From NCBI RefSeq assembly GCF_001468285.1, contig NZ_LNSB01000013.1:1-64000 (forward strand): a stretch of 64,000 bases of DNA. The letters run 5' to 3'. This DNA is from Sphingopyxis sp. HIX. GTDB taxonomy: Bacteria > Pseudomonadota > Alphaproteobacteria > Sphingomonadales > Sphingomonadaceae. A program made the translations under genes and the position numbers. Below, one piece after another: positions 1,163 to 10,086 of this stretch; the stretch's first letter is position 1, and each line of letters begins with the position of its first letter. The notes beneath the pieces are model-generated. The model ran no database searches, was not told the DNA's origin, and worked only from the letters and a program-made list of their open reading frames with translations.

Positions 1163-3454
1163 TCAGAAGCGGTAGCTGAGCGAGGCGCTCGCGTTGCGGC
1201 CGGGCTGGGTATAGGCGTCGGCGATCAGCGAGGTCGAAGCGAGGCCGCGGACGTCGCTCCACCAGCTGTATTTCTTGTCGAGGATGTTGAAGACGCCGGC
1301 GCGCAAGGTCAGCCCGTCGACGATGCGCACGAAGGCGGTCGCGTCGAGGATGGTGAAGCCGTCGGGGCGGAAACATTGCGGCGTGCAGAGCCCGTCGGTG
1401 CGCGACGCCTCCTTGCGCGCGGCGTGCGTCATGATGACCTGCCCGCCGAAGCGCCCGCTGCGTTCACGATAACCGATGCCGGCCACCAGCTTCAGCGGGT
1501 CGATCGTCGACAGCGGGCTGCGCGCGCCGGTCGGCTCGATCACGTCGCCGGTGGCATAGGATAGGGCGAGCGTCGTATAGAGGCCGGACGACGCTCGCCC
1601 CTCGAACCGCGCTTCGGCGCCCTTGACGCGAACACGATCGAGATTCACGAATTGATAGACGGCCGGGTCGGCGGGGGTGAAGCTGCCGTCCACGACCTCC
1701 TGGCTGATGAAATCCTTGTAGCGCGAGCGGAACGCCGTCACGTCGAGGCTGATCGCGTCGTTCGAAAAGCGGATGCCGCCCTCGAAGCTTTCGCTGCGCT
1801 CGGGCCCGAGATCGGGGTTCGGGATCGAGGTGTAGCCCGAGGCGAGATTTTCGAAGAACTGGTTTACCTGGCCGGGCTCCGGCGCCTTGAAGCCGGTGGC
1901 ATAGTTGCCGAACAGGCGGACCTCGTCGGTGATCTTGAACACCGCGCCGAATTTGGGCGAGACGCGCGAGCCGTCCTGTCCGGCGCCGTTGAAGGCAGGG
2001 AGCAGCGGATCGTCGTCGGGCGACAGATCGTACCAGTCGAAGCGCAGCGCCGGATAGAGCAGCAGGCGGCCGTCGGCGATCGAGATTTCGTCGCCGACGA
2101 ACAGGCCGGCGCGGGTGAAATCGGTGCTGGGGAAGGCGCGCGTCGGGAAGGTCTCGCCGAAGGGCGGCACGGTGCCGTCGCGCAGGCCGCGCTGGCGCGT
2201 CTTGCTGATGTCGCCGCCGAAGACGAGGCGGTGCGAGATGGAACCGGTGTTGAAGTCGGCGCGCGCGTCGGCGGCGGCGCCGATCACGCGGTTCTCGAAG
2301 GTGTTGAGGCGGGTGCGGTCGGCGGCGGGGGTGCGGTCTTCCTCGGTGTACTGATTATCCTCGCCGTCCTGCCAGTAGAGCGCGACGCGGGCGAAATCGA
2401 TCGCGCCCTCGCCTTCCCAGCTCCAGTCGAGCGACACGCGCTTGCGCTCACCGCTGTCGAAGCCTTCGAGGCGGTCGACGCTGGAGGTGATCACGCCCGC
2501 GGCGTTGCGCGTCGCGGTCACGCCGGTCAGGCCGTTGGTGTAGAGATGGGTGTCGAGATATTCGCCGGTCAGGCGCAACTTGTGGCCGTTGGCGGGATCG
2601 TAGACGATGCGCGCGAGCGCGGCGTTCGACTTGCCGTCCTGCGGGTTGGGCAAGGTGCGCTGCGGCCCGGTGCCGGGGACGAGGCCCGAAGTACCGGGAG
2701 TCCCGACGGGGAAGACGATGCCGGGGTTGGTGCCCTTGTTGTCGAGTTCCTTCCAGTCGCGGCGCGTATAGGCGGCCATCACCGACCAGTCGCCGCTGCG
2801 GCCCGCGATGATCGCGGTTTCGCTATATTCGTCGTCGGCGCTGCTGTAAGCGGCGCGGACGAGGCCGCCGACGGACTTGCCGCCGGTCAGGAAATCGGCG
2901 GGATCGCTGGTGACGAAGCTGACCGCGCCGGCGAGACCGTCGCTGCCGTAGAGCGCCGACGAGGGGCCGCGCAGGATTTCGACCGACTTGACGAGGCCGA
3001 GGTCGACATAGTCGCCGCGGCCCGCGGCCTGCGCGCCGAAGCTGAAGCCGTCGGGGACGCGCACGCCGTCGACCTGGATCAGCACGCGGTTGCCGCCGAT
3101 GCCGCGGATGTTGAAGCTGTCGTTGCCCGCGCGGCCGGTCGCGCCGAGCGCGGCGCCGAAACGCGCGGGCTGGCGCTGGACGCTGACGCCGGGCTCGAAG
3201 CGGATAAGGTCGCGGATGTCGGTCGCCAGCTCGTTGGCGATCTGCTCCTCGGTGATCAGCGAGACGGTGAGCGGCACATCCTCGGCCTTCACCTCGGTGC
3301 GCGTCGCGGTGACGACGATCTGGTTCTTGCGCGCCACCCAATATTCGCCGTCATTGTCCTGCGCCATCGCGGGCGCGGCGGTCGCGGCAAGCGCGATACC
3401 GAGCGCGGTGCCCGCGGCGAGCCGGTGGATGGACGGCGAACCCTGGATCTTCAA
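1163..3454 (-). CDS. TonB-dependent haem/haemoprotein outer-membrane receptor
   Basis: A 763-residue outer-membrane receptor. It has a signal peptide (cleavage near AMA-QDN), a TonB-box-like IVVTATR segment, a plug domain (residues about 60-170, with GVRVPDG and SSALYGSDGLAG) and a beta-barrel ending in YRF. The barrel carries FKAP followed by NPDLGPERS, the haem-receptor FRAP/NPNL signature, so haem or a haemoprotein is the likely ligand. The start codon is TTG at 3454, preceded by AAGGGGAAG at good spacing; no ATG lies close by. Upstream are a sigma70-like promoter and two Fur-type palindromes, indicating iron control. It is followed by the DUF6607-like gene. A siderophore receptor is the main alternative. 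Confidence 0.85.
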   Translation of the reverse strand: MKIQGSPSIHRLAAGTALGIALAATAAPAMAQDNDGEYWVARKNQIVVTATRTEVKAEDVPLTVSLITEEQIANELATDIRDLIRFEPGVSVQRQPARFGAALGATGRAGNDSFNIRGIGGNRVLIQVDGVRVPDGFSFGAQAAGRGDYVDLGLVKSVEILRGPSSALYGSDGLAGAVSFVTSDPADFLTGGKSVGGLVRAAYSSADDEYSETAIIAGRSGDWSVMAAYTRRDWKELDNKGTNPGIVFPVGTPGTSGLVPGTGPQRTLPNPQDGKSNAALARIVYDPANGHKLRLTGEYLDTHLYTNGLTGVTATRNAAGVITSSVDRLEGFDSGERKRVSLDWSWEGEGAIDFARVALYWQDGEDNQYTEEDRTPAADRTRLNTFENRVIGAAADARADFNTGSISHRLVFGGDISKTRQRGLRDGTVPPFGETFPTRAFPSTDFTRAGLFVGDEISIADGRLLLYPALRFDWYDLSPDDDPLLPAFNGAGQDGSRVSPKFGAVFKITDEVRLFGNYATGFKAPEPGQVNQFFENLASGYTSIPNPDLGPERSESFEGGIRFSNDAISLDVTAFRSRYKDFISQEVVDGSFTPADPAVYQFVNLDRVRVKGAEARFEGRASSGLYTTLALSYATGDVIEPTGARSPLSTIDPLKLVAGIGYRERSGRFGGQVIMTHAARKEASRTDGLCTPQCFRPDGFTILDATAFVRIVDGLTLRAGVFNILDKKYSWWSDVRGLASTSLIADAYTQPGRNASASLSYRF

Positions 3455-3472: not shown

Positions 3473-3489
3473 TTGCGAGTGACTCGCAA
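3473..3489. promoter_or_regulatory. Fur-like operator 1, perfect palindrome
   Basis: TTGCGAGT-G-ACTCGCAA is a perfect 8-1-8 palindrome centred on 3481. It overlaps the predicted transcription start of the haem receptor gene, placing a bound repressor on the promoter. The architecture resembles alphaproteobacterial Fur/Mur boxes; assignment to the Fur encoded at 9661-10086 is inference. Confidence 0.6.
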
Positions 3490-3536: not shown

Positions 3537-3553
3537 ATGCGAATCGTTCGCGT
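3537..3553. promoter_or_regulatory. Fur-like operator 2
   Basis: A second palindrome centred on 3545, with GCGAA (3539-3543) and TTCGC (3547-3551) around TCG, has the same general layout as operator 1. It lies just upstream of the -35 element, 64 bases from the centre of operator 1. Its distance from the TIR gene start (3654) leaves open an effect on that gene too. Confidence 0.45.
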
Positions 3554-3653
3554 AAAATGAATGATCCTCCTCACGCGCAGCGATGGGGAGGATCATTCAG
3601 CCATTGCCCTCCCCTGCCCCGCGCGGCATGATCGGCGCGGGGGGACAGGAGCG

Positions 3654-4634
3654 ATGGCGGCAGAGGTCTTCATCAGCTATTCGTCGAAGGACCGCACCGT
3701 CGCGAACATGGTGTGCGCGCTGCTCGAGGAGCGCGGGCACCGCTGCTGGATCGCGCCGCGCGACATATTGCCCGGCACCGAATGGGGCGAGGCGATCATC
3801 ACCGGCCTCAAGGGCGCGCAGGTCTTCGTCCTCGTTTTTTCGCAGCACGCCAACACCTCGCCGCAGATCCTGCGCGAGGTCGAGCGCGCAGTGCACCTCG
3901 GCCTGCCGATCATCCCCTTTCGCATCGAGGACGTCGTCCCCGAACGCAGCCTCGAATATTTCATGAGCGTGCCGCACTGGCTCGACGCGCTGTCGCCGCC
4001 GGTCGAGGACCATATCGCGCGGCTGGGCGACGTGGTGAGCCAGCTGGTCAATGGTGTCACCGATGCGCGCGAATATCGCTCGGCCAAGCCGCAGGGCGCC
4101 GCGAAGCTCAGCTGGAACAATGCGCTGGTGCGCGCGGGGACGGGCGGCGCGGTGCTCGCGCTGCTGCTGCTCGCGGCGTGGCTCGGCGGGCTGGCGCCGC
4201 CCGCCTCGCCGGTGGGCTGGCTCGCGGCGCTGGTCGCGCTCGCGATCCCCGCGGGGGTGATCGGCAGCGGGCAGGCGAAATGGTGGACCAAGCGCGGCGT
4301 GCAGTCGGCGCTGCTTGCGCTGCTGTTCGTTGCGGCGGCGGCTTATGGCTGGGCGCACAGCGGCTATGTGATCGCGGGCGAACAGGGCGCGCCGCTGGTG
4401 CGCGGCACCGAATGCACGCCCGATGCGAAGCTGGTCTACGAGAGCGAATGCCCCGACCTGCCGTCCGACGCGCTGATCGACGCGGCCTATGACGAGGCGG
4501 CGCTGTGGACCGCGGGGTCGATCGGGCGCGTCAAGCTGATGCTGGGCGGGGCGTGGATGCTCGCCGCGGCGGCAGCGGCGCTGCTGGTCGCGGGCTGGCT
4601 CGGCGGGCCGCGGCGCCTGAAGCAGGAGGAATGA
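3654..4634 (+). CDS. TIR-domain protein with four membrane helices
   Basis: A 326-residue protein. Residues 3-115 form a TIR_2-type domain: VFISYSSKDR, CWIAPRDILPG, VFVLVFSQHAN and the SPQILREVERAV helix whose Glu75 is at the position of the catalytic glutamate of NAD-cleaving TIRs. Four hydrophobic helices follow (about 161-179, 185-203, 216-234 and 295-316). With the TIR domain inside, the loop 236-294 would face the periplasm; it holds two cysteines (254 and 266). I chose ATG 3654 because the domain begins immediately after it and AGGAG precedes it, although the spacing is short; the frame is open upstream to 3561. The stop is one base from the next ATG, so it is the first gene of an operon with the two secreted proteins. 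Function is unknown; a stress or defence effector or a signalling role are both possible. Confidence 0.8.
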   Translation: MAAEVFISYSSKDRTVANMVCALLEERGHRCWIAPRDILPGTEWGEAIITGLKGAQVFVLVFSQHANTSPQILREVERAVHLGLPIIPFRIEDVVPERSLEYFMSVPHWLDALSPPVEDHIARLGDVVSQLVNGVTDAREYRSAKPQGAAKLSWNNALVRAGTGGAVLALLLLAAWLGGLAPPASPVGWLAALVALAIPAGVIGSGQAKWWTKRGVQSALLALLFVAAAAYGWAHSGYVIAGEQGAPLVRGTECTPDAKLVYESECPDLPSDALIDAAYDEAALWTAGSIGRVKLMLGGAWMLAAAAAALLVAGWLGGPRRLKQEE

Positions 4635-4635
4635 G

Positions 4636-5541
4636 ATGCGCATCGGGGGGATGATGGCCGCACTGACGGCGCTGACAGGACCGGTCGCGGCAGAGGCGCA
4701 GACGCCGCCCGACGCGGCGGCGCTGAAGGCGATCGAGGCCAAGGTGCCGCCGCAAGGCTGGTATCCCGAGGGCTATTACGACGTCCGCATCGCCGCCGAG
4801 GCGCAGGTGGCCGAACATCCGCGCGCGGTGAAGGACCTGGTCTTCGACTGGGACGACGGCAACGGCAAGCGCTACGACATCATCGATTGCAGCGCCGAAT
4901 ATTATACCGATTCCGCCGAATATGACGCGGTGACGCTGCGCTATGTGACCGATGCGGTCGACATCTCGCGCATCCGTTCCGAACTCGAGCGGCTGGGCTT
5001 CCCGCTCGCGGTCTATGCCGAGCCGCTCGCCGCCTTCGAGCGCGCACGGGTCGAGGCGGCGGCGAAGCTGTCCGAGCGCGAAGTGCGCATTGCCGCGGGG
5101 GTTGAGATGCCCGCGGAAGACGAGCCCTATCCCGACGACGTCGGCGATTATGAAGATTCGGCCGAATACAAGTTCGTCCAGGCGGTCGAGGCCAATCGCA
5201 AAAGGCTCGCACCCAAGCTGCCCGCGGTGACGCTCGAGGGCGGCTGCGGCGCGGGCGACGGCGCCCCGGTGATCGTCAAGACCAGCCCGCCGGGCGGCGA
5301 GGTGCTGCTGGTCAACGCCTTCGCCTTCAAGGTGTGCACACGCAAGAAAACCGACCCGTGGGACCGCTTCGCGTGCAAGTGGAACGAGATCGAGACGGGG
5401 GTCGAGAAGCAGCTCTCCGGCCGCTACGTCTATCAGGTGAAATGGCCCGACGGGGTGGTGCGCAAGGGCACGCGCGAGATCATCGCGGGCCCCGACGGCG
5501 ATCCGGCGTCGACGGTGACGTTCCGGAAAACGGGGAGCTGA
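4636..5541 (+). CDS. Secreted four-cysteine protein A, partner of the TIR protein
   Basis: A 301-residue protein with an N-terminal signal peptide (cleavage near AEA-QTP, residue 21) and no other membrane segment, so probably periplasmic. I recognise no family. Two blocks are shared with the next gene: GWYPEGYYDVRIAAEA (41-56) and a C-terminal module from about residue 219 to the end (VLLVNAFAFKVCTRKKTDPW, then WNEIETG and YVYQVKWPDG). Cysteines 85, 204, 234 and 247 all have counterparts in the paralogue, suggesting two conserved disulfides. Its ATG lies one base after the TIR stop codon, so the genes are co-transcribed and probably translationally coupled. Confidence 0.7.
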   Translation: MRIGGMMAALTALTGPVAAEAQTPPDAAALKAIEAKVPPQGWYPEGYYDVRIAAEAQVAEHPRAVKDLVFDWDDGNGKRYDIIDCSAEYYTDSAEYDAVTLRYVTDAVDISRIRSELERLGFPLAVYAEPLAAFERARVEAAAKLSEREVRIAAGVEMPAEDEPYPDDVGDYEDSAEYKFVQAVEANRKRLAPKLPAVTLEGGCGAGDGAPVIVKTSPPGGEVLLVNAFAFKVCTRKKTDPWDRFACKWNEIETGVEKQLSGRYVYQVKWPDGVVRKGTREIIAGPDGDPASTVTFRKTGS

Positions 5542-5543
5542 GC

Positions 5544-6410
5544 ATGGGCGGCCGAACGCTCGCCGCCTTGCTGCTGCTCGCGGGTCCGGCGACCGCCGCC
5601 GCGCAGGAGACCGACGAAGCCGCTGCGATGCGCGGCTTCGAGGCGGCCGTGCCGCGGCAGGACTGGTATCCCGAGGGCTATTACGACATCCGCATCGCCG
5701 CCGAGGCCGAGATGGCCGAGGTCATCGCGAGCCCCGCCGCGGACCGCCCCGAAACGCCGGGCGGCGACCATAATCTGATCGCCTGCGACGCGCGAAAGCT
5801 GAGCAGCAGCGCGGCCGACCCGTTGCTGGAACGTTATGGCGATACCGCGCTCGAAACCGCACGGCTGCGCGCGCAGCTCGGCCGGCTCGGCTATCCGGCC
5901 GGCGTCGCGGCCAGCCCCTTGCTCGCCTTCGAACGGGCGCGCATCGCGGTCGATGGCGGCGGCAAGGGATCGGGCGATCCCTATGAAGTGCTCGCCGAGG
6001 CGCTCAACGCCGCGCGGGCGAGCACGCCCGCCCTGCCCGAAGTCTTCGCCTTCGACGAATGCCGCCCGCCGCCCGCCGCCGCCCCTTCGCCGGCTCCCGG
6101 CAGGCCGGCCGTCGCCGCAGTCCGGCCACGGCGGACGGCCGGCGTGACCTTCGTCACCCAGCCTTCGGCGGGCGAGCTGTTGATGATCGACGCCTTTGCG
6201 TTCAAGGTCTGCACGCGCAAGCAGTCCGACCCGTGGGACCGCTTCCAGTGCCGCTGGAACGAGATCGAGACCGGCGTCGCGAAGCCGATGTCGGGCCGCT
6301 TCGTCTATCAGGTCAAATGGCCCGACGGCACGATACGCAAGGGCACACGCGAGGTCGCGCCCGGACCGGGCGGCGCGGCCACCGTCACCTTCCGCAAGAC
6401 GGGAAGCTAG
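5544..6410 (+). CDS. Secreted four-cysteine protein B, paralogue of A
   Basis: A 288-residue protein with a signal peptide (cleavage near AAA-QET, residue 20). It is a tandem paralogue of the preceding gene: DWYPEGYYDIRIAAEA (40-55) and a C-terminal module with FAFKVCTRKQSDPWDRF, WNEIETG and YVYQVKWPDGT are nearly identical, while the middle diverges and gains a Pro/Ala-rich linker (about 174-198). Cysteines 81, 173, 223 and 236 match those of protein A. The start is ATG 5544, two bases after the previous stop. The stop codon overlaps the phoH stop on the opposite strand, both within the tetranucleotide CTAG at 6407-6410. Function unknown. Confidence 0.7.
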   Translation: MGGRTLAALLLLAGPATAAAQETDEAAAMRGFEAAVPRQDWYPEGYYDIRIAAEAEMAEVIASPAADRPETPGGDHNLIACDARKLSSSAADPLLERYGDTALETARLRAQLGRLGYPAGVAASPLLAFERARIAVDGGGKGSGDPYEVLAEALNAARASTPALPEVFAFDECRPPPAAAPSPAPGRPAVAAVRPRRTAGVTFVTQPSAGELLMIDAFAFKVCTRKQSDPWDRFQCRWNEIETGVAKPMSGRFVYQVKWPDGTIRKGTREVAPGPGGAATVTFRKTGS

Positions 6411-7414
6411 GCCCCCGGCCCCTCATAGGCATCGACGATGCGCCCGACGATCGGGTGGCGCACGACGTCGGCGCTGGTGAAGCGGCTGACGTTGATGCCC
6501 TCCAGCCCTTCGAGCCGCGCGACCGCGTCGGCGAGACCCGAGGTTGCGGGGACCGGCAGGTCGACCTGTTTCGGGTCGCCGCAGATCACCATGCGGCTGT
6601 TCATGCCGAAACGCGTGAGGAACATCTTCATCTGCGGGATCGTCGTGTTCTGCGCCTCGTCGAGGATGATGAAGGCGTCGGCGAGCGTGCGCCCGCGCAT
6701 GAAGGCGAGCGGCGCGATCTCGATCTCTCCGCTCGCGATGCGGCGCTCGACCTGCTCGGCGGGCAGGCAATCGTGGAGCGCATCGTAGAGCGGGCGCAGA
6801 TAGGGATCGACCTTTTCCTTCATGTCGCCGGGCAGGAAGCCCAATTTCTCGCCCGCCTCGACCGCGGGGCGCGAGAGGATCAGGCGCTGGACGCTGCCGG
6901 TGATCAGCTGCGCCACCGCCTGCGCGACCGCGAGATAGGTCTTGCCGGTGCCCGCGGGGCCGAGCGCGAAGATCACGTCGTCGCGGGCGAGCGCCTGCAT
7001 ATAGGGGACCTGCGACGGCGCGCGCGGGACGATCGTCTTCTTGCGCGTGCGGATCATGATCGGCGGCGCCGCGTTGGTATCGTGGCGGATGATGCCGTCG
7101 AGCGTCGGCTGCGCCGACATCGCGATCACCCCGTCGACCATGCCGGCGTCGACCTCCTGCCCCTGTTCGGCGCGGTTGTAGAGATCGACGAGCACGTCGC
7201 GCGCGCGCGCCGCGGCCTCGGCCTCACCCTCGATCTGGACGCGGTTGCCGCGCGCCGAGATATAGACGCCGAGCCGGTTTTCGATCGCTACCAGGTTGCG
7301 GTCGAATTCGCCGAACAGGATGCCCAGCAGCTGGGTCCGCTCAAACTCCGCCGTCAATCGGACGCGGTCGCCGGGTTCGGCGGGGGCAGCGGCAGTCAGC
7401 GGGCGTTTGGACAT
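6407..7414 (-). CDS. phoH: PhoH family ATPase
   Basis: A 335-residue cytoplasmic protein with the PhoH P-loop ATPase domain: Walker A GPAGTGKT (about residues 151-158), followed by the PhoH-typical RPAVEAGEKLGFLPGD stretch and the Walker B LDEAQNTT. The N-terminal third looks like a KH-type RNA-binding segment, as is usual for PhoH. It lies downstream of miaB, the usual order in Alphaproteobacteria, where ybeY normally follows; here it is instead the last gene of the run and converges on the TIR operon. GGAG precedes the ATG at good spacing. Confidence 0.93.
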   Translation of the reverse strand: MSKRPLTAAAPAEPGDRVRLTAEFERTQLLGILFGEFDRNLVAIENRLGVYISARGNRVQIEGEAEAAARARDVLVDLYNRAEQGQEVDAGMVDGVIAMSAQPTLDGIIRHDTNAAPPIMIRTRKKTIVPRAPSQVPYMQALARDDVIFALGPAGTGKTYLAVAQAVAQLITGSVQRLILSRPAVEAGEKLGFLPGDMKEKVDPYLRPLYDALHDCLPAEQVERRIASGEIEIAPLAFMRGRTLADAFIILDEAQNTTIPQMKMFLTRFGMNSRMVICGDPKQVDLPVPATSGLADAVARLEGLEGINVSRFTSADVVRHPIVGRIVDAYEGPGA

Positions 7415-8894: not shown

Positions 8895-9689
8895 CTATAG
8901 GCGATGCCGCGACGCGGCGGAAGGGCGCGCATTTTCCGCGATTTCCGCGGCGATCGCGGCGCGCGCGGCCTCGTTGATCGCCTTGCGGTCCTGCTCGACA
9001 TGGTCGGGCAGCGGATCGAGATAATGGATGGTCAGCGGGATCGCGCGCCGCCGCGCGAGCAGCCGTTTGAAGTTGTCGAGCCCGGATTCGGGGTCGAGCC
9101 ACGCGATGTCGTTCGCCTCAGCCCCATAGTCGAGGAACACCGGCTGGACGCGCAGCTTCGGCGGGGTCGGGACGATCGCCTGGAACAGCGAGGCGCGAAA
9201 GGGCAGCAGGCCGTCGCCGGGCCCGGTCGTACCCTCCGGGAACAAGGTCACCGGGCGCCCGCGCGCGAGCGCCTCGCGCAGGCTGTTTGCCTGGTTGTGG
9301 ATCTCGCGCTTCGCCTCGCGCTGGACGTAGATGGTCTTGTTCTGGTCGGCGAGCCAGCCGACGAGCGGCGTCGTCTCGACCTCCGCCTTCGACACGAAGG
9401 CCGAGCGCGCGGCCCCGCCGAGCGCGAGGATGTCGAGCCAGCTGACATGGTTCGAGACGAACAATACGTCGCGCCGCAGCCGCGTGCCGGTGGTGTGAAT
9501 GCGCAGCCCCGCGATCCAGCCGACGGCATTGAGGAAGGCCATGACCATCGGCGAGGGCCGGCCGACTGCGCGGTAGCAGAGATGCGGCACGATCAGGAAC
9601 AGCAACGTCAGCACCATCAGGGCGAGACGCGCGACCGTGCGCCAGGTTATGCGGGCGGCGTCAGCCCTTGTCGCGACCGAGGGAGACAC
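8895..9689 (-). CDS. plsC: 1-acyl-sn-glycerol-3-phosphate acyltransferase
   Basis: A 264-residue inner-membrane acyltransferase that makes phosphatidic acid from lysophosphatidate. It has hydrophobic helices at about 20-60, then the HX4D catalytic motif NHVSWLD (about 80-86) and the substrate-binding block FPEGTTG (about 150-156). The start is GTG 9689 with GGAG seven bases before it; this overlaps the end of fur by 29 bases, suggesting translational coupling. A PlsC-family acyltransferase of lipid A or ornithine-lipid synthesis cannot be excluded. Confidence 0.88.
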   Translation of the reverse strand: MSPSVATRADAARITWRTVARLALMVLTLLFLIVPHLCYRAVGRPSPMVMAFLNAVGWIAGLRIHTTGTRLRRDVLFVSNHVSWLDILALGGAARSAFVSKAEVETTPLVGWLADQNKTIYVQREAKREIHNQANSLREALARGRPVTLFPEGTTGPGDGLLPFRASLFQAIVPTPPKLRVQPVFLDYGAEANDIAWLDPESGLDNFKRLLARRRAIPLTIHYLDPLPDHVEQDRKAINEAARAAIAAEIAENARPSAASRHRL

Positions 9690-10086
9690 CGTAAAGCTCC
9701 ATGCGATGGTCGACGAGGCGGAAGCCCAGGCGTTCGGCGATCACCTTCTGCAACGCCTCGAGCTCGGGATCGACGAATTCGATCACCTTGCCCGTCTCGA
9801 CGTCGATCAGATGGTCGTGATGCGCCTCGGGCGCGGCCTCGTAGCGCGAGCGGCCGTCGCCGAAATCGTGGCGGTCGAGGATGCCCGCCTCTTCGAACAG
9901 GCGCACGGTACGATAGACGGTCGCGATCGAGATGCCGCTGTCGAGCTTCGACGCGCGCTCATAGAGCGTTTCGACATCGGGATGATCTTCGCTGTCGGAG
10001 ATCACGCGCGCGATGATGCGGCGCTGCTCGGTGATGCGCAGCCCCTTTTCGTGGCACAAAGCTTCGAGGTCGATGGTACCGGACAT
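9661..10086 (-). CDS. fur: Fur family metalloregulator (Fur/Mur type)
   Basis: A 141-residue winged-helix repressor. The recognition-helix region SGISIATVYRTVRLFEEAG (about 50-68) and the metal-site stretch HHDHLIDVETGKVIEF (about 90-105) are typical. The C-terminal CxxC cysteines of the E. coli protein are absent (IDVETG takes their place), as in alphaproteobacterial Fur/Mur proteins that may sense manganese as well as iron. It is the likely controller of the palindromes at 3473-3489 and 3537-3553. It overlaps the plsC start downstream. Confidence 0.9.
   Translation of the reverse strand: MSGTIDLEALCHEKGLRITEQRRIIARVISDSEDHPDVETLYERASKLDSGISIATVYRTVRLFEEAGILDRHDFGDGRSRYEAAPEAHHDHLIDVETGKVIEFVDPELEALQKVIAERLGFRLVDHRMELYGVSLGRDKG

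What the first reader, a model, noticed from the sequence alone, without database searches (positions are those of the whole stretch)
3654..6410. Membrane TIR protein operonic with two secreted four-cysteine paralogues
The TIR protein keeps the CWIAPRDI motif and a Glu at the catalytic position, has four helices and a periplasmic loop with two cysteines. One and two bases after each stop come two exported paralogues with conserved WYPEGYYD and FKVCTRK modules and four matching cysteines. Known TIR defence modules (Thoeris and similar) have cytosolic partners; secreted partners next to a membrane TIR suggest a periplasmic sensor that controls a cytoplasmic TIR enzyme. Seen directly: gene order, motifs and cysteines. 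Inferred: the sensor-effector link and any NADase role.
Basis: partly seen in the sequence, partly recalled or inferred. Interest (0 to 1): 0.75.

Follow-up and report, generated by a model that had tools for sequence, protein, structure and literature searches.

The report
Membrane TIR receptor with exported partners
In some Sphingopyxis bacteria an immune-type TIR domain is fused to a four-helix membrane anchor that is inherited together with small exported proteins, which looks like a bacterial receptor that reads the outside of the cell membrane and acts inside, although what it senses and whether it fights viruses is untested.

Summary
In detail: TIR-4TM protein (3654-4634), then two exported four-cysteine paralogues (4636-5541, 5544-6410), 1 and 2 bases apart. 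The interpretation needs recasting. The conserved unit is the four-helix membrane domain with its two-cysteine loop plus the exported protein. Four loci outside Sphingopyxis (Sphingomonadales MAG, Sphingobium, Phenylobacterium MAG, Acidobacteria MAG) keep this pair without TIR, exported gene directly upstream. The TIR fusion was seen only in Sphingopyxis: 17 of 80 genomes have the membrane domain and the same 17 the exported family. More distant exported homologues stand alone. Glu75 is kept in 16 of 16 complete copies. TIR and loop are the most constrained parts (dN/dS about 0.15); the exported N-domain is looser (0.47). The operon has its own conserved promoter-like site (16 of 16), sits in a fixed core-genome site, is patchy, and is no Thoeris: 0 of 17 carry ThsA-type STALD. 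The same genome has four more TIR-TM-C-terminal-domain proteins, and operon genomes hold more other TIR hits (mean 3.8 against 0.9). Best reading: a membrane TIR receptor whose exported partners cluster or release it. Ligand, NAD cleavage and defence role are inferred.

The parts
3604..3632 (+). conserved promoter-like site TTGCCC-N17-CATGAT, 21 bases before the TIR start codon
   Evidence: same spacing in 16 of 16 complete Sphingopyxis loci, CATGAT in 14 and CATGGT in 2
3654..4634 (+). TIR-4TM protein, 326 aa
   Evidence: TIR_2 78.7 bits; four hydrophobic helices; alignment A6; AF2 model mean pLDDT 72, pTM 0.56
3654..4043 (+). cytosolic TIR domain (residues 1-130), Glu75 at 3876-3878
   Evidence: median dN/dS 0.16
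4113..4604 (+). four-helix membrane domain (residues 154-317), shared with TIR-less proteins of other taxa
4368..4511 (+). loop (residues 239-286), predicted periplasmic, with C254 and C266; motif CTxxAxxVxxxxCPxL and, 14 residues on, LWT
   Evidence: invariant columns across 20 proteins; median dN/dS 0.145; topology from helix count and positive-inside charge, inferred
4636..5541 (+). exported protein A, 301 aa: helical N-domain (about 25-190) and beta-sandwich C-domain (205-301)
   Evidence: no Pfam family
5544..6410 (+). exported protein B, 288 aa, paralogue of A
6407..7414 (-). PhoH-like gene, convergent: fixed downstream neighbour of the module (not part of it)
   Evidence: PF02562; on the downstream side in the window and 13 fetched loci, from 2 bases to about 1.2 kb past the last exported piece
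1163..3454 (-). TonB-dependent receptor, divergent upstream neighbour (not part of the module)
   Evidence: PF00593 and PF07715; also present without the module in 15 of 20 genomes

Best explanation
This is an accessory transmembrane receptor unit. Shown: a four-helix membrane domain with a conserved two-cysteine loop occurs together with an exported-type two-domain protein, in two gene orders and, with the TIR-less pairs, in two phyla (one of them through a single MAG); in Sphingopyxis an intact TIR domain is fused to the N-terminus of the membrane domain. Inferred: the loop is periplasmic and docks the conserved C-domain of the exported proteins; their variable helical N-domains meet the ligand or the stressed envelope component; binding or loss of binding clusters the membrane domains; clustered TIR domains form the composite active site known from TIR NADases and cleave or cyclise NAD+, stopping growth of the damaged or infected cell. 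The unit is one of several membrane TIR proteins in these genomes that differ in the part beyond the membrane. Confidence refers to the receptor reading (exported protein to membrane loop to TIR output), not to a proven NADase or anti-phage role, which I put at about 0.5 and 0.35.
For: Same 17 of 80 genus genomes carry both parts. TIR-less pairs in four other taxa with the exported gene directly upstream of the 4TM gene, two of them with overlapping stop and start. Loop and TIR share the strongest constraint (0.145, 0.16), the exported C-domain 0.23, its N-domain 0.47. Exported copy number varies from one to at least four behind one TIR gene. Glu75 kept in 16 of 16 and aligned to the Glu of four other TIRs. 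TIR half matches TIR structures including SARM1, and a profile of the family finds TIR-STING and TLR1 (E 0.0002 and 0.0015). Four other TIR proteins of the genome are TIR-TM-C-terminal domain, three with SH3+YARHG, OmpA or DUF3617. Clustering activates TIR NADases in SpbK (PMC12847820, passages).
Against: No direct contact evidence: no complex could be modelled. Outside Sphingopyxis the four pairs lack TIR, so the pair has some job that needs no TIR. In the genus the two parts lie in one operon, so the 17/17 match is one linked locus and not 17 independent events. PhoH-tree patchiness is close to random (9 changes against 11.1 shuffled; 140 of 1000 shuffles as low), which leaves loss against recombination open. 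The TIR half of the model is only moderate (ten-residue means of 40 to 77 over residues 1-130), Foldseek E for it is 0.002 or worse, and phmmer with the window TIR alone found no PDB relative at E 0.01. The neighbourhood is housekeeping (PhoH, MiaB-type radical SAM, acyltransferase, Fur, MucR), not a defence island.
Confidence: 0.55

Rival explanations
1. The 4TM protein and the exported protein form an envelope-assembly or quality-control pair; in Sphingopyxis the fused TIR is a non-catalytic scaffold or regulator that recruits other TIR proteins.
For: TIR-less pairs in four taxa; exported homologues alone in three more genomes; operon genomes hold more other TIR hits, as expected of a scaffold network.
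Against: Glu75 invariant in 16 of 16 and the TIR domain as constrained as any part measured; the pair is rare and patchy rather than universal.
Confidence: 0.25
2. The exported proteins are competition factors or decoys and the 4TM protein is their immunity or receptor; TIR reports on attack.
For: tandem duplication and fast N-domain and linker evolution of the exported proteins.
Against: the Sphingomonadales MAG homologue has a lipobox (LLAAC), as does the stand-alone G631 relative (LTAC), both by eye, which suggests anchoring in the own cell; conserved C-domain and no toxin family in Pfam.
Confidence: 0.1
3. The genes share only a promoter: TIR-4TM and the exported proteins act independently.
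For: a third own-genome copy of the exported protein lies 64 kb from the operon.
Against: pairing of 4TM and exported protein in reversed gene order in four other taxa.
Confidence: 0.1

Closest known systems
Thoeris (ThsB TIR + ThsA)
   Same: TIR domain as the likely enzyme; weak ThsB_TIR profile match under cut-off
   Different: membrane-anchored TIR with exported partners; no ThsA-type STALD domain in any of the 17 operon genomes
SpbK-type single TIR antiphage protein (PMC12847820, passages)
   Same: TIR fused to a second domain that could bring TIRs together
   Different: SpbK has an N-terminal domain that binds a phage portal; here a four-helix membrane domain with exported partners
VMAP-type ternary systems with diversified sensors (PMC10907252, passages)
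   Same: authors predict antigen sensors, one of them (DGR 5) secreted or on the surface, in loci with effector domains such as TIR: an earlier proposal of an exported sensor in a conflict locus
   Different: vWA-CLec sensors diversified by retroelements and a MoxR ATPase; nothing of that kind in this locus
TIR with 2TM SLATT proteins in Firmicute phages (PMC9503650, passages)
   Same: a TIR gene next to a membrane protein
   Different: separate two-helix protein, no exported partner mentioned in the passages seen
Animal Toll-like and IL-1 receptors
   Same: extracytoplasmic recognition, membrane span, cytosolic TIR (architecture in PMC7075850, passages)
   Different: four spans, TIR at the N-terminus, recognition part on separate exported proteins; no shared ectodomain
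Other Sphingopyxis TIR-TM proteins (TIR-TM-SH3-YARHG, TIR-TM-OmpA, TIR-TM-DUF3617)
   Same: N-terminal TIR, membrane span, C-terminal domain predicted periplasmic; same genome
   Different: single span with covalently attached domain; their neighbours were not examined
Zorya (PMC11890865, passages)
   Same: inner-membrane complex reaching the periplasm coupled to a cytosolic effector
   Different: ion-driven motor proteins with peptidoglycan-binding periplasmic domains and a nickase effector; no TIR in the unit

Membership tests
TIR domain (PF13676) | score over the curated cut-off | tested here: met
   78.7 bits against 28; 16 of the 20 members of A6 match at E 0.01, the number that carry the domain
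TIR NADase | catalytic Glu in the helix after the third strand | tested here: met
   Glu75 present in 16 of 16, one of six invariant columns with four other TIRs, in helix 70-81 of the model; equivalence to SARM1 Glu642 is recalled
TIR NADase | cleavage or cyclisation of NAD+ | not testable with these tools
   needs an assay
Thoeris | ThsA partner with STALD domain | tested here: not met
   PF18185 in 0 of 17 operon genomes, 4 of the other 63; ThsA types without STALD not tested
Thoeris | ThsB-type TIR | tested here: not met
   ThsB_TIR 17 bits against 21.2; Thoeris_type3_ThcB4 15.2 against 220
CBASS TIR-SAVED | SAVED domain on the TIR protein | tested here: not met
   PADLOC SAVED_TIR matches only profile 13-92 of 404, the TIR part; no SAVED family in the Pfam scan; the C-terminal part is the four-helix domain
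Toll-like receptor-like plan | extracytoplasmic sensor, membrane span, cytosolic TIR | tested here: inconclusive
   helices, loop charge and exported partners fit; topology and sensing not measured
PEGA or transthyretin-like domain (exported C-domain) | fold and profile match | tested here: inconclusive
Defence-island gene | sits among known defence genes | tested here: not met
   seven neighbours scanned are PhoH, radical SAM, acyltransferase, Fur, MucR, TonB receptor, DUF6607

The most novel reading that the evidence does not exclude
Sphingopyxis carries a set of bacterial counterparts of Toll-like receptors: a common cytosolic TIR output joined through the membrane to interchangeable periplasmic recognition parts (SH3-YARHG, OmpA, DUF3617, others), and in this locus to a four-helix module read out through fast-evolving, tandemly duplicated exported proteins. 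The TIRs may talk to each other or feed one shared downstream answer, because genomes with this operon hold about four times as many other TIR hits as those without.
Probability: 0.3. Interest if true: 0.85.

Novelty: new variant of a known kind. Interest (0 to 1): 0.6.

Why it matters
The characterised bacterial TIR defence modules I know of detect threats inside the cell (general knowledge); exported sensors near TIR effectors have been predicted before (PMC10907252, passages). A TIR protein wired through the membrane to exported proteins would let a bacterium answer to envelope events such as phage adsorption or wall damage before anything enters, and would be a bacterial parallel to Toll-like receptors with a directly testable parts list: loop, exported C-domain, exported N-domain, Glu75. 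The TIR-less pairs also give a natural way to find out what the membrane-exported pair does by itself.

Tried and rejected
Weak NADH-dehydrogenase 49 kDa/NuoD-type matches of the exported proteins (E 0.002 to 0.25; 10-17 bits against cut-offs of 24 to 600) centre on the DPWDRF..W.E segment and were set aside as chance. Four weak 4TM-profile hits in the family sample (E 0.002-0.0075) were taken as membrane-helix noise without reading them. Iron control of the operon: palindromes TTGCGA...TCGCAA and GCGAATCGTTCGC lie between the TonB receptor and the TIR gene, but my pattern finds such sites in only 10 of 16 loci, while the TTGCCC-N17-CATG(A/G)T site is in 16 of 16, so I treat the iron boxes as those of the TonB gene. 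(Offsets printed for them are not distances to the ATG.) Plasmids: only four Variovorax records with a C-domain match at E 1e-3, none for 4TM at E 0.01. Viral contigs: 21 pattern matches, none a relative. Phylum sample of 398: only the own genome. Foldseek gave no PDB match under E 0.001 for either model. Fold absence in the PDB lists is not evidence of a new fold.

Print searches: Sphingopyxis + TIR domain (1 paper, PADLOC, listing only); YARHG + TIR (0 papers); membrane-anchored/transmembrane TIR wording (175 papers, 12 listed, none relevant by title); TIR domain + OmpA + periplasmic domain + NAD (1, Zorya); further listings (1 paper; 6; 13; 10 of 1,012 listed; 4). Passages of six papers were seen; PMC11237479 concerns a different 'Tir' and was set aside. 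I found no description of this unit in these; subscription papers are mostly not held.
Full report
What is there. The TIR gene starts at 3654 with a purine-rich stretch before it and ends at 4634; the first exported gene follows after one base (4636-5541) and the second after two (5544-6410). The TIR domain is clear (PF13676, 78.7 bits, cut-off 28). The C-terminal half has four hydrophobic helices and a loop with C254 and C266. The exported proteins have no Pfam family.

Relatives inside the genus. The record titles of the genome scan name the genus as Sphingopyxis. A profile of the membrane domain finds 17 of 80 genus genomes, a profile of the exported protein finds 17 of 80, and the two sets are identical. 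Reading the loci: 16 of 17 could be read through the TIR and all 16 are TIR-4TM fusions with Glu75 (Glu76 by one extra residue in L052); the 17th (G330) is cut by a contig end. One to at least four exported genes or pieces follow. PhoH is on the downstream side in the window and in 13 fetched loci, from 2 bases to about 1.2 kb past the last exported piece; in G335 the operon appears split over two contigs, with an exported copy 2 bases from PhoH on the second; the loci of G330 and G361 end at contig ends. In 20 genus genomes without the module that I fetched (of the 63 without it), 15 keep the TonB receptor 221 to 3314 bases beyond PhoH and none shows TIR, 4TM or exported gene in the roughly 7 kb taken (tblastn E 1e-8). 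On a phoH plus DUF6607 tree of 34 genomes (14 with, 20 without; DUF6607 available for 25) the module changes state 9 times, against 11.1 for shuffled labels, 140 of 1000 shuffles being as low: presence is patchy and close to random on that tree, so losses or exchange at a fixed site are both possible.

Relatives outside the genus. In a sample of 298 genomes of the family three, the own genome included, have the exported protein (E up to 0.001), and the same three have a strong membrane-domain match (where the query was built from them, so this is not an independent test). In the two others, and in two more loci found by a scan of 84,980 species, the membrane protein is a free-standing 4TM protein without TIR and the exported gene lies directly upstream: Sphingomonadales MAG (L012/L053/L085), Sphingobium xanthum NL9 (L013/L054/L087), a Phenylobacterium MAG (L086) and an Acidobacteria MAG (L088). 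Stop and start overlap in L012 (TGATG) and L086 (ATGA); the gaps are 9 bases in L088 and 29 in L013. The alignment of 20 proteins keeps C254, T255, A258, V261, C266, P267, L269, the LWT triplet and other columns in all. The pattern scan is not exhaustive: 11 of its 15 loci belong to the genus, where the profile search found 17 genomes. A profile of 33 exported proteins finds, in 385 class genomes, three besides the own (G631, G647, G724), and nothing beyond the own genome in 398 phylum genomes. No 4TM or TIR profile match was found in the 12-13 kb fetched around those three. A TIR profile that finds the positive controls L006, L008 and L040 finds nothing in the four TIR-less pairs (4.6 to 16 kb each), in the Variovorax stretch, or around the solo copies of the own genome (15 kb) and of G335 (3.9 kb only). 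Own-genome copy three, at C13:70468-71346, lies among uvrB, an oxidoreductase and an S10 peptidase. So the exported protein is the widest part, the 4TM domain its frequent partner, and TIR a fusion seen only in Sphingopyxis.

Constraint. Pairwise counts over 16 genomes (120 pairs) give median dN/dS of 0.16 for TIR, 0.145 for the loop, 0.25 for the membrane domain, 0.23 for the exported C-domain, 0.47 for its N-domain, and 0.53-0.55 for linkers. A receptor whose fixed parts are output, loop and docking domain and whose variable part meets the outside would look like this; faster drift of a structurally tolerant N-domain would too. TIR and exported identities correlate only weakly (rho 0.28 over non-independent pairs).

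Structure. The exported protein models well (pLDDT 86, pTM 0.82): a helical N-domain and a beta-sandwich C-domain. The C-domain falls among transthyretin-like, CnaB and similar domains with low Z (best 5.4, rmsd 3.1, 79 residues). The TIR-4TM model is weaker (72, 0.56); its TIR half matches TIR structures, SARM1 and SPARTA included, at probability near 1.0 but E 0.002-0.02. By sequence the window TIR alone finds no PDB chain at E 0.01, while the family profile finds a metazoan TIR-STING (E 0.0002) and TLR1 (E 0.0015), aligned over residues 5-67 only, so not over Glu75. The two C-domain cysteines (C234, C247) are in 33 of 33; the one sequence that lost C204 also lacks C85, which fits a C85-C204 disulphide but is a single case.

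Expression. TTGCCC-N17-CATGAT or CATGGT lies 16-22 bases before the TIR start in 16 of 16 loci, so the operon probably has its own vegetative-type promoter (inferred from the consensus, not tested).

Other TIRs. The own genome has six further TIR_2 loci. Four have a TIR, one predicted span and a C-terminal part: with SH3_3 and YARHG, with OmpA, with DUF3617, and one without a family; two (L010, L011) show no span. Of 37 TIR hits in 21 genus genomes I read 32: 4 are this operon, 20 are TIR, single span and a C-terminal part of 137-336 residues, 1 has two spans, 5 show no span (one of them, L148, reads doubtfully) and 2 gave no usable frame; the remaining 5 hits, the window's own among them, were not in that table. 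Spans come from a hydropathy window, not a topology predictor. Over all 80 genomes, operon carriers have on average 3.8 other TIR hits (17 of 17 have at least one), the rest 0.90 (28 of 63); Mann-Whitney p 1.2e-7, and 5.8e-6 after removing a linear effect of genome size. Shared ancestry was not corrected for, a few hits are fragments or under the family's cut-off, and I subtracted one TIR per operon genome without checking each.

How it most likely works. Shown: parts, order, conservation, co-occurrence. Inferred: export to the periplasm, docking of the C-domain on the loop, change of clustering of the membrane domain, TIR assembly and NAD+ cleavage. Clustering-driven activation of TIR NADases is described for SpbK and others (PMC12847820, passages). 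Patchiness and TIR enrichment fit defence, but also fit other accessory stress functions.

Known or new. TIR domains, TIR NADases and membrane-coupled defence are known kinds, a secreted sensor has been predicted in a conflict-system locus of a type that often carries TIR effectors (PMC10907252, passages), and phage TIR genes sit beside 2TM SLATT genes (PMC9503650, passages). I found no description of this 4TM-exported pair, of its TIR fusion, or of the TIR-TM-SH3-YARHG or TIR-TM-OmpA plans in the searches listed under Tried and rejected; PMC7075850 (passages and its section on prokaryotic TIRs) says that bacterial TIR groups have diverse architectures. I rate it a new variant of a known kind.

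Noticed in passing
L006:631-1848, L007:535-1854, L008:1453-2472, L009:1486-3015: Four other TIR proteins of the same genome are TIR, one predicted span and a C-terminal domain: SH3_3+YARHG, OmpA, DUF3617, and one unknown.
   Followed up: partly
whole genus, 80 genomes: TIR_2 hits are unevenly spread: 35 of 80 genomes have none, operon carriers have 2-7 in all.
   Followed up: partly
3473-3489 and 3539-3551: Two palindromes that look like iron boxes between the divergent TonB receptor and the TIR operon; a Fur-family gene lies at 9661-10086.
   Followed up: partly
L055:5434-6384: Variovorax megaplasmid protein related to the exported C-domain, near a small hydrophobic protein and a type I restriction system.
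   Followed up: partly
L153-L155: Three Sphingopyxis genomes without the operon carry strong STALD (ThsA-type) matches, so Thoeris-like genes exist in the genus; a fourth hit (L156) is partial.
   Followed up: no
L039:8891-11991, L040:8580-10693: Extra exported copies downstream in two genomes are broken into partial reading frames, as if decaying.
   Followed up: no
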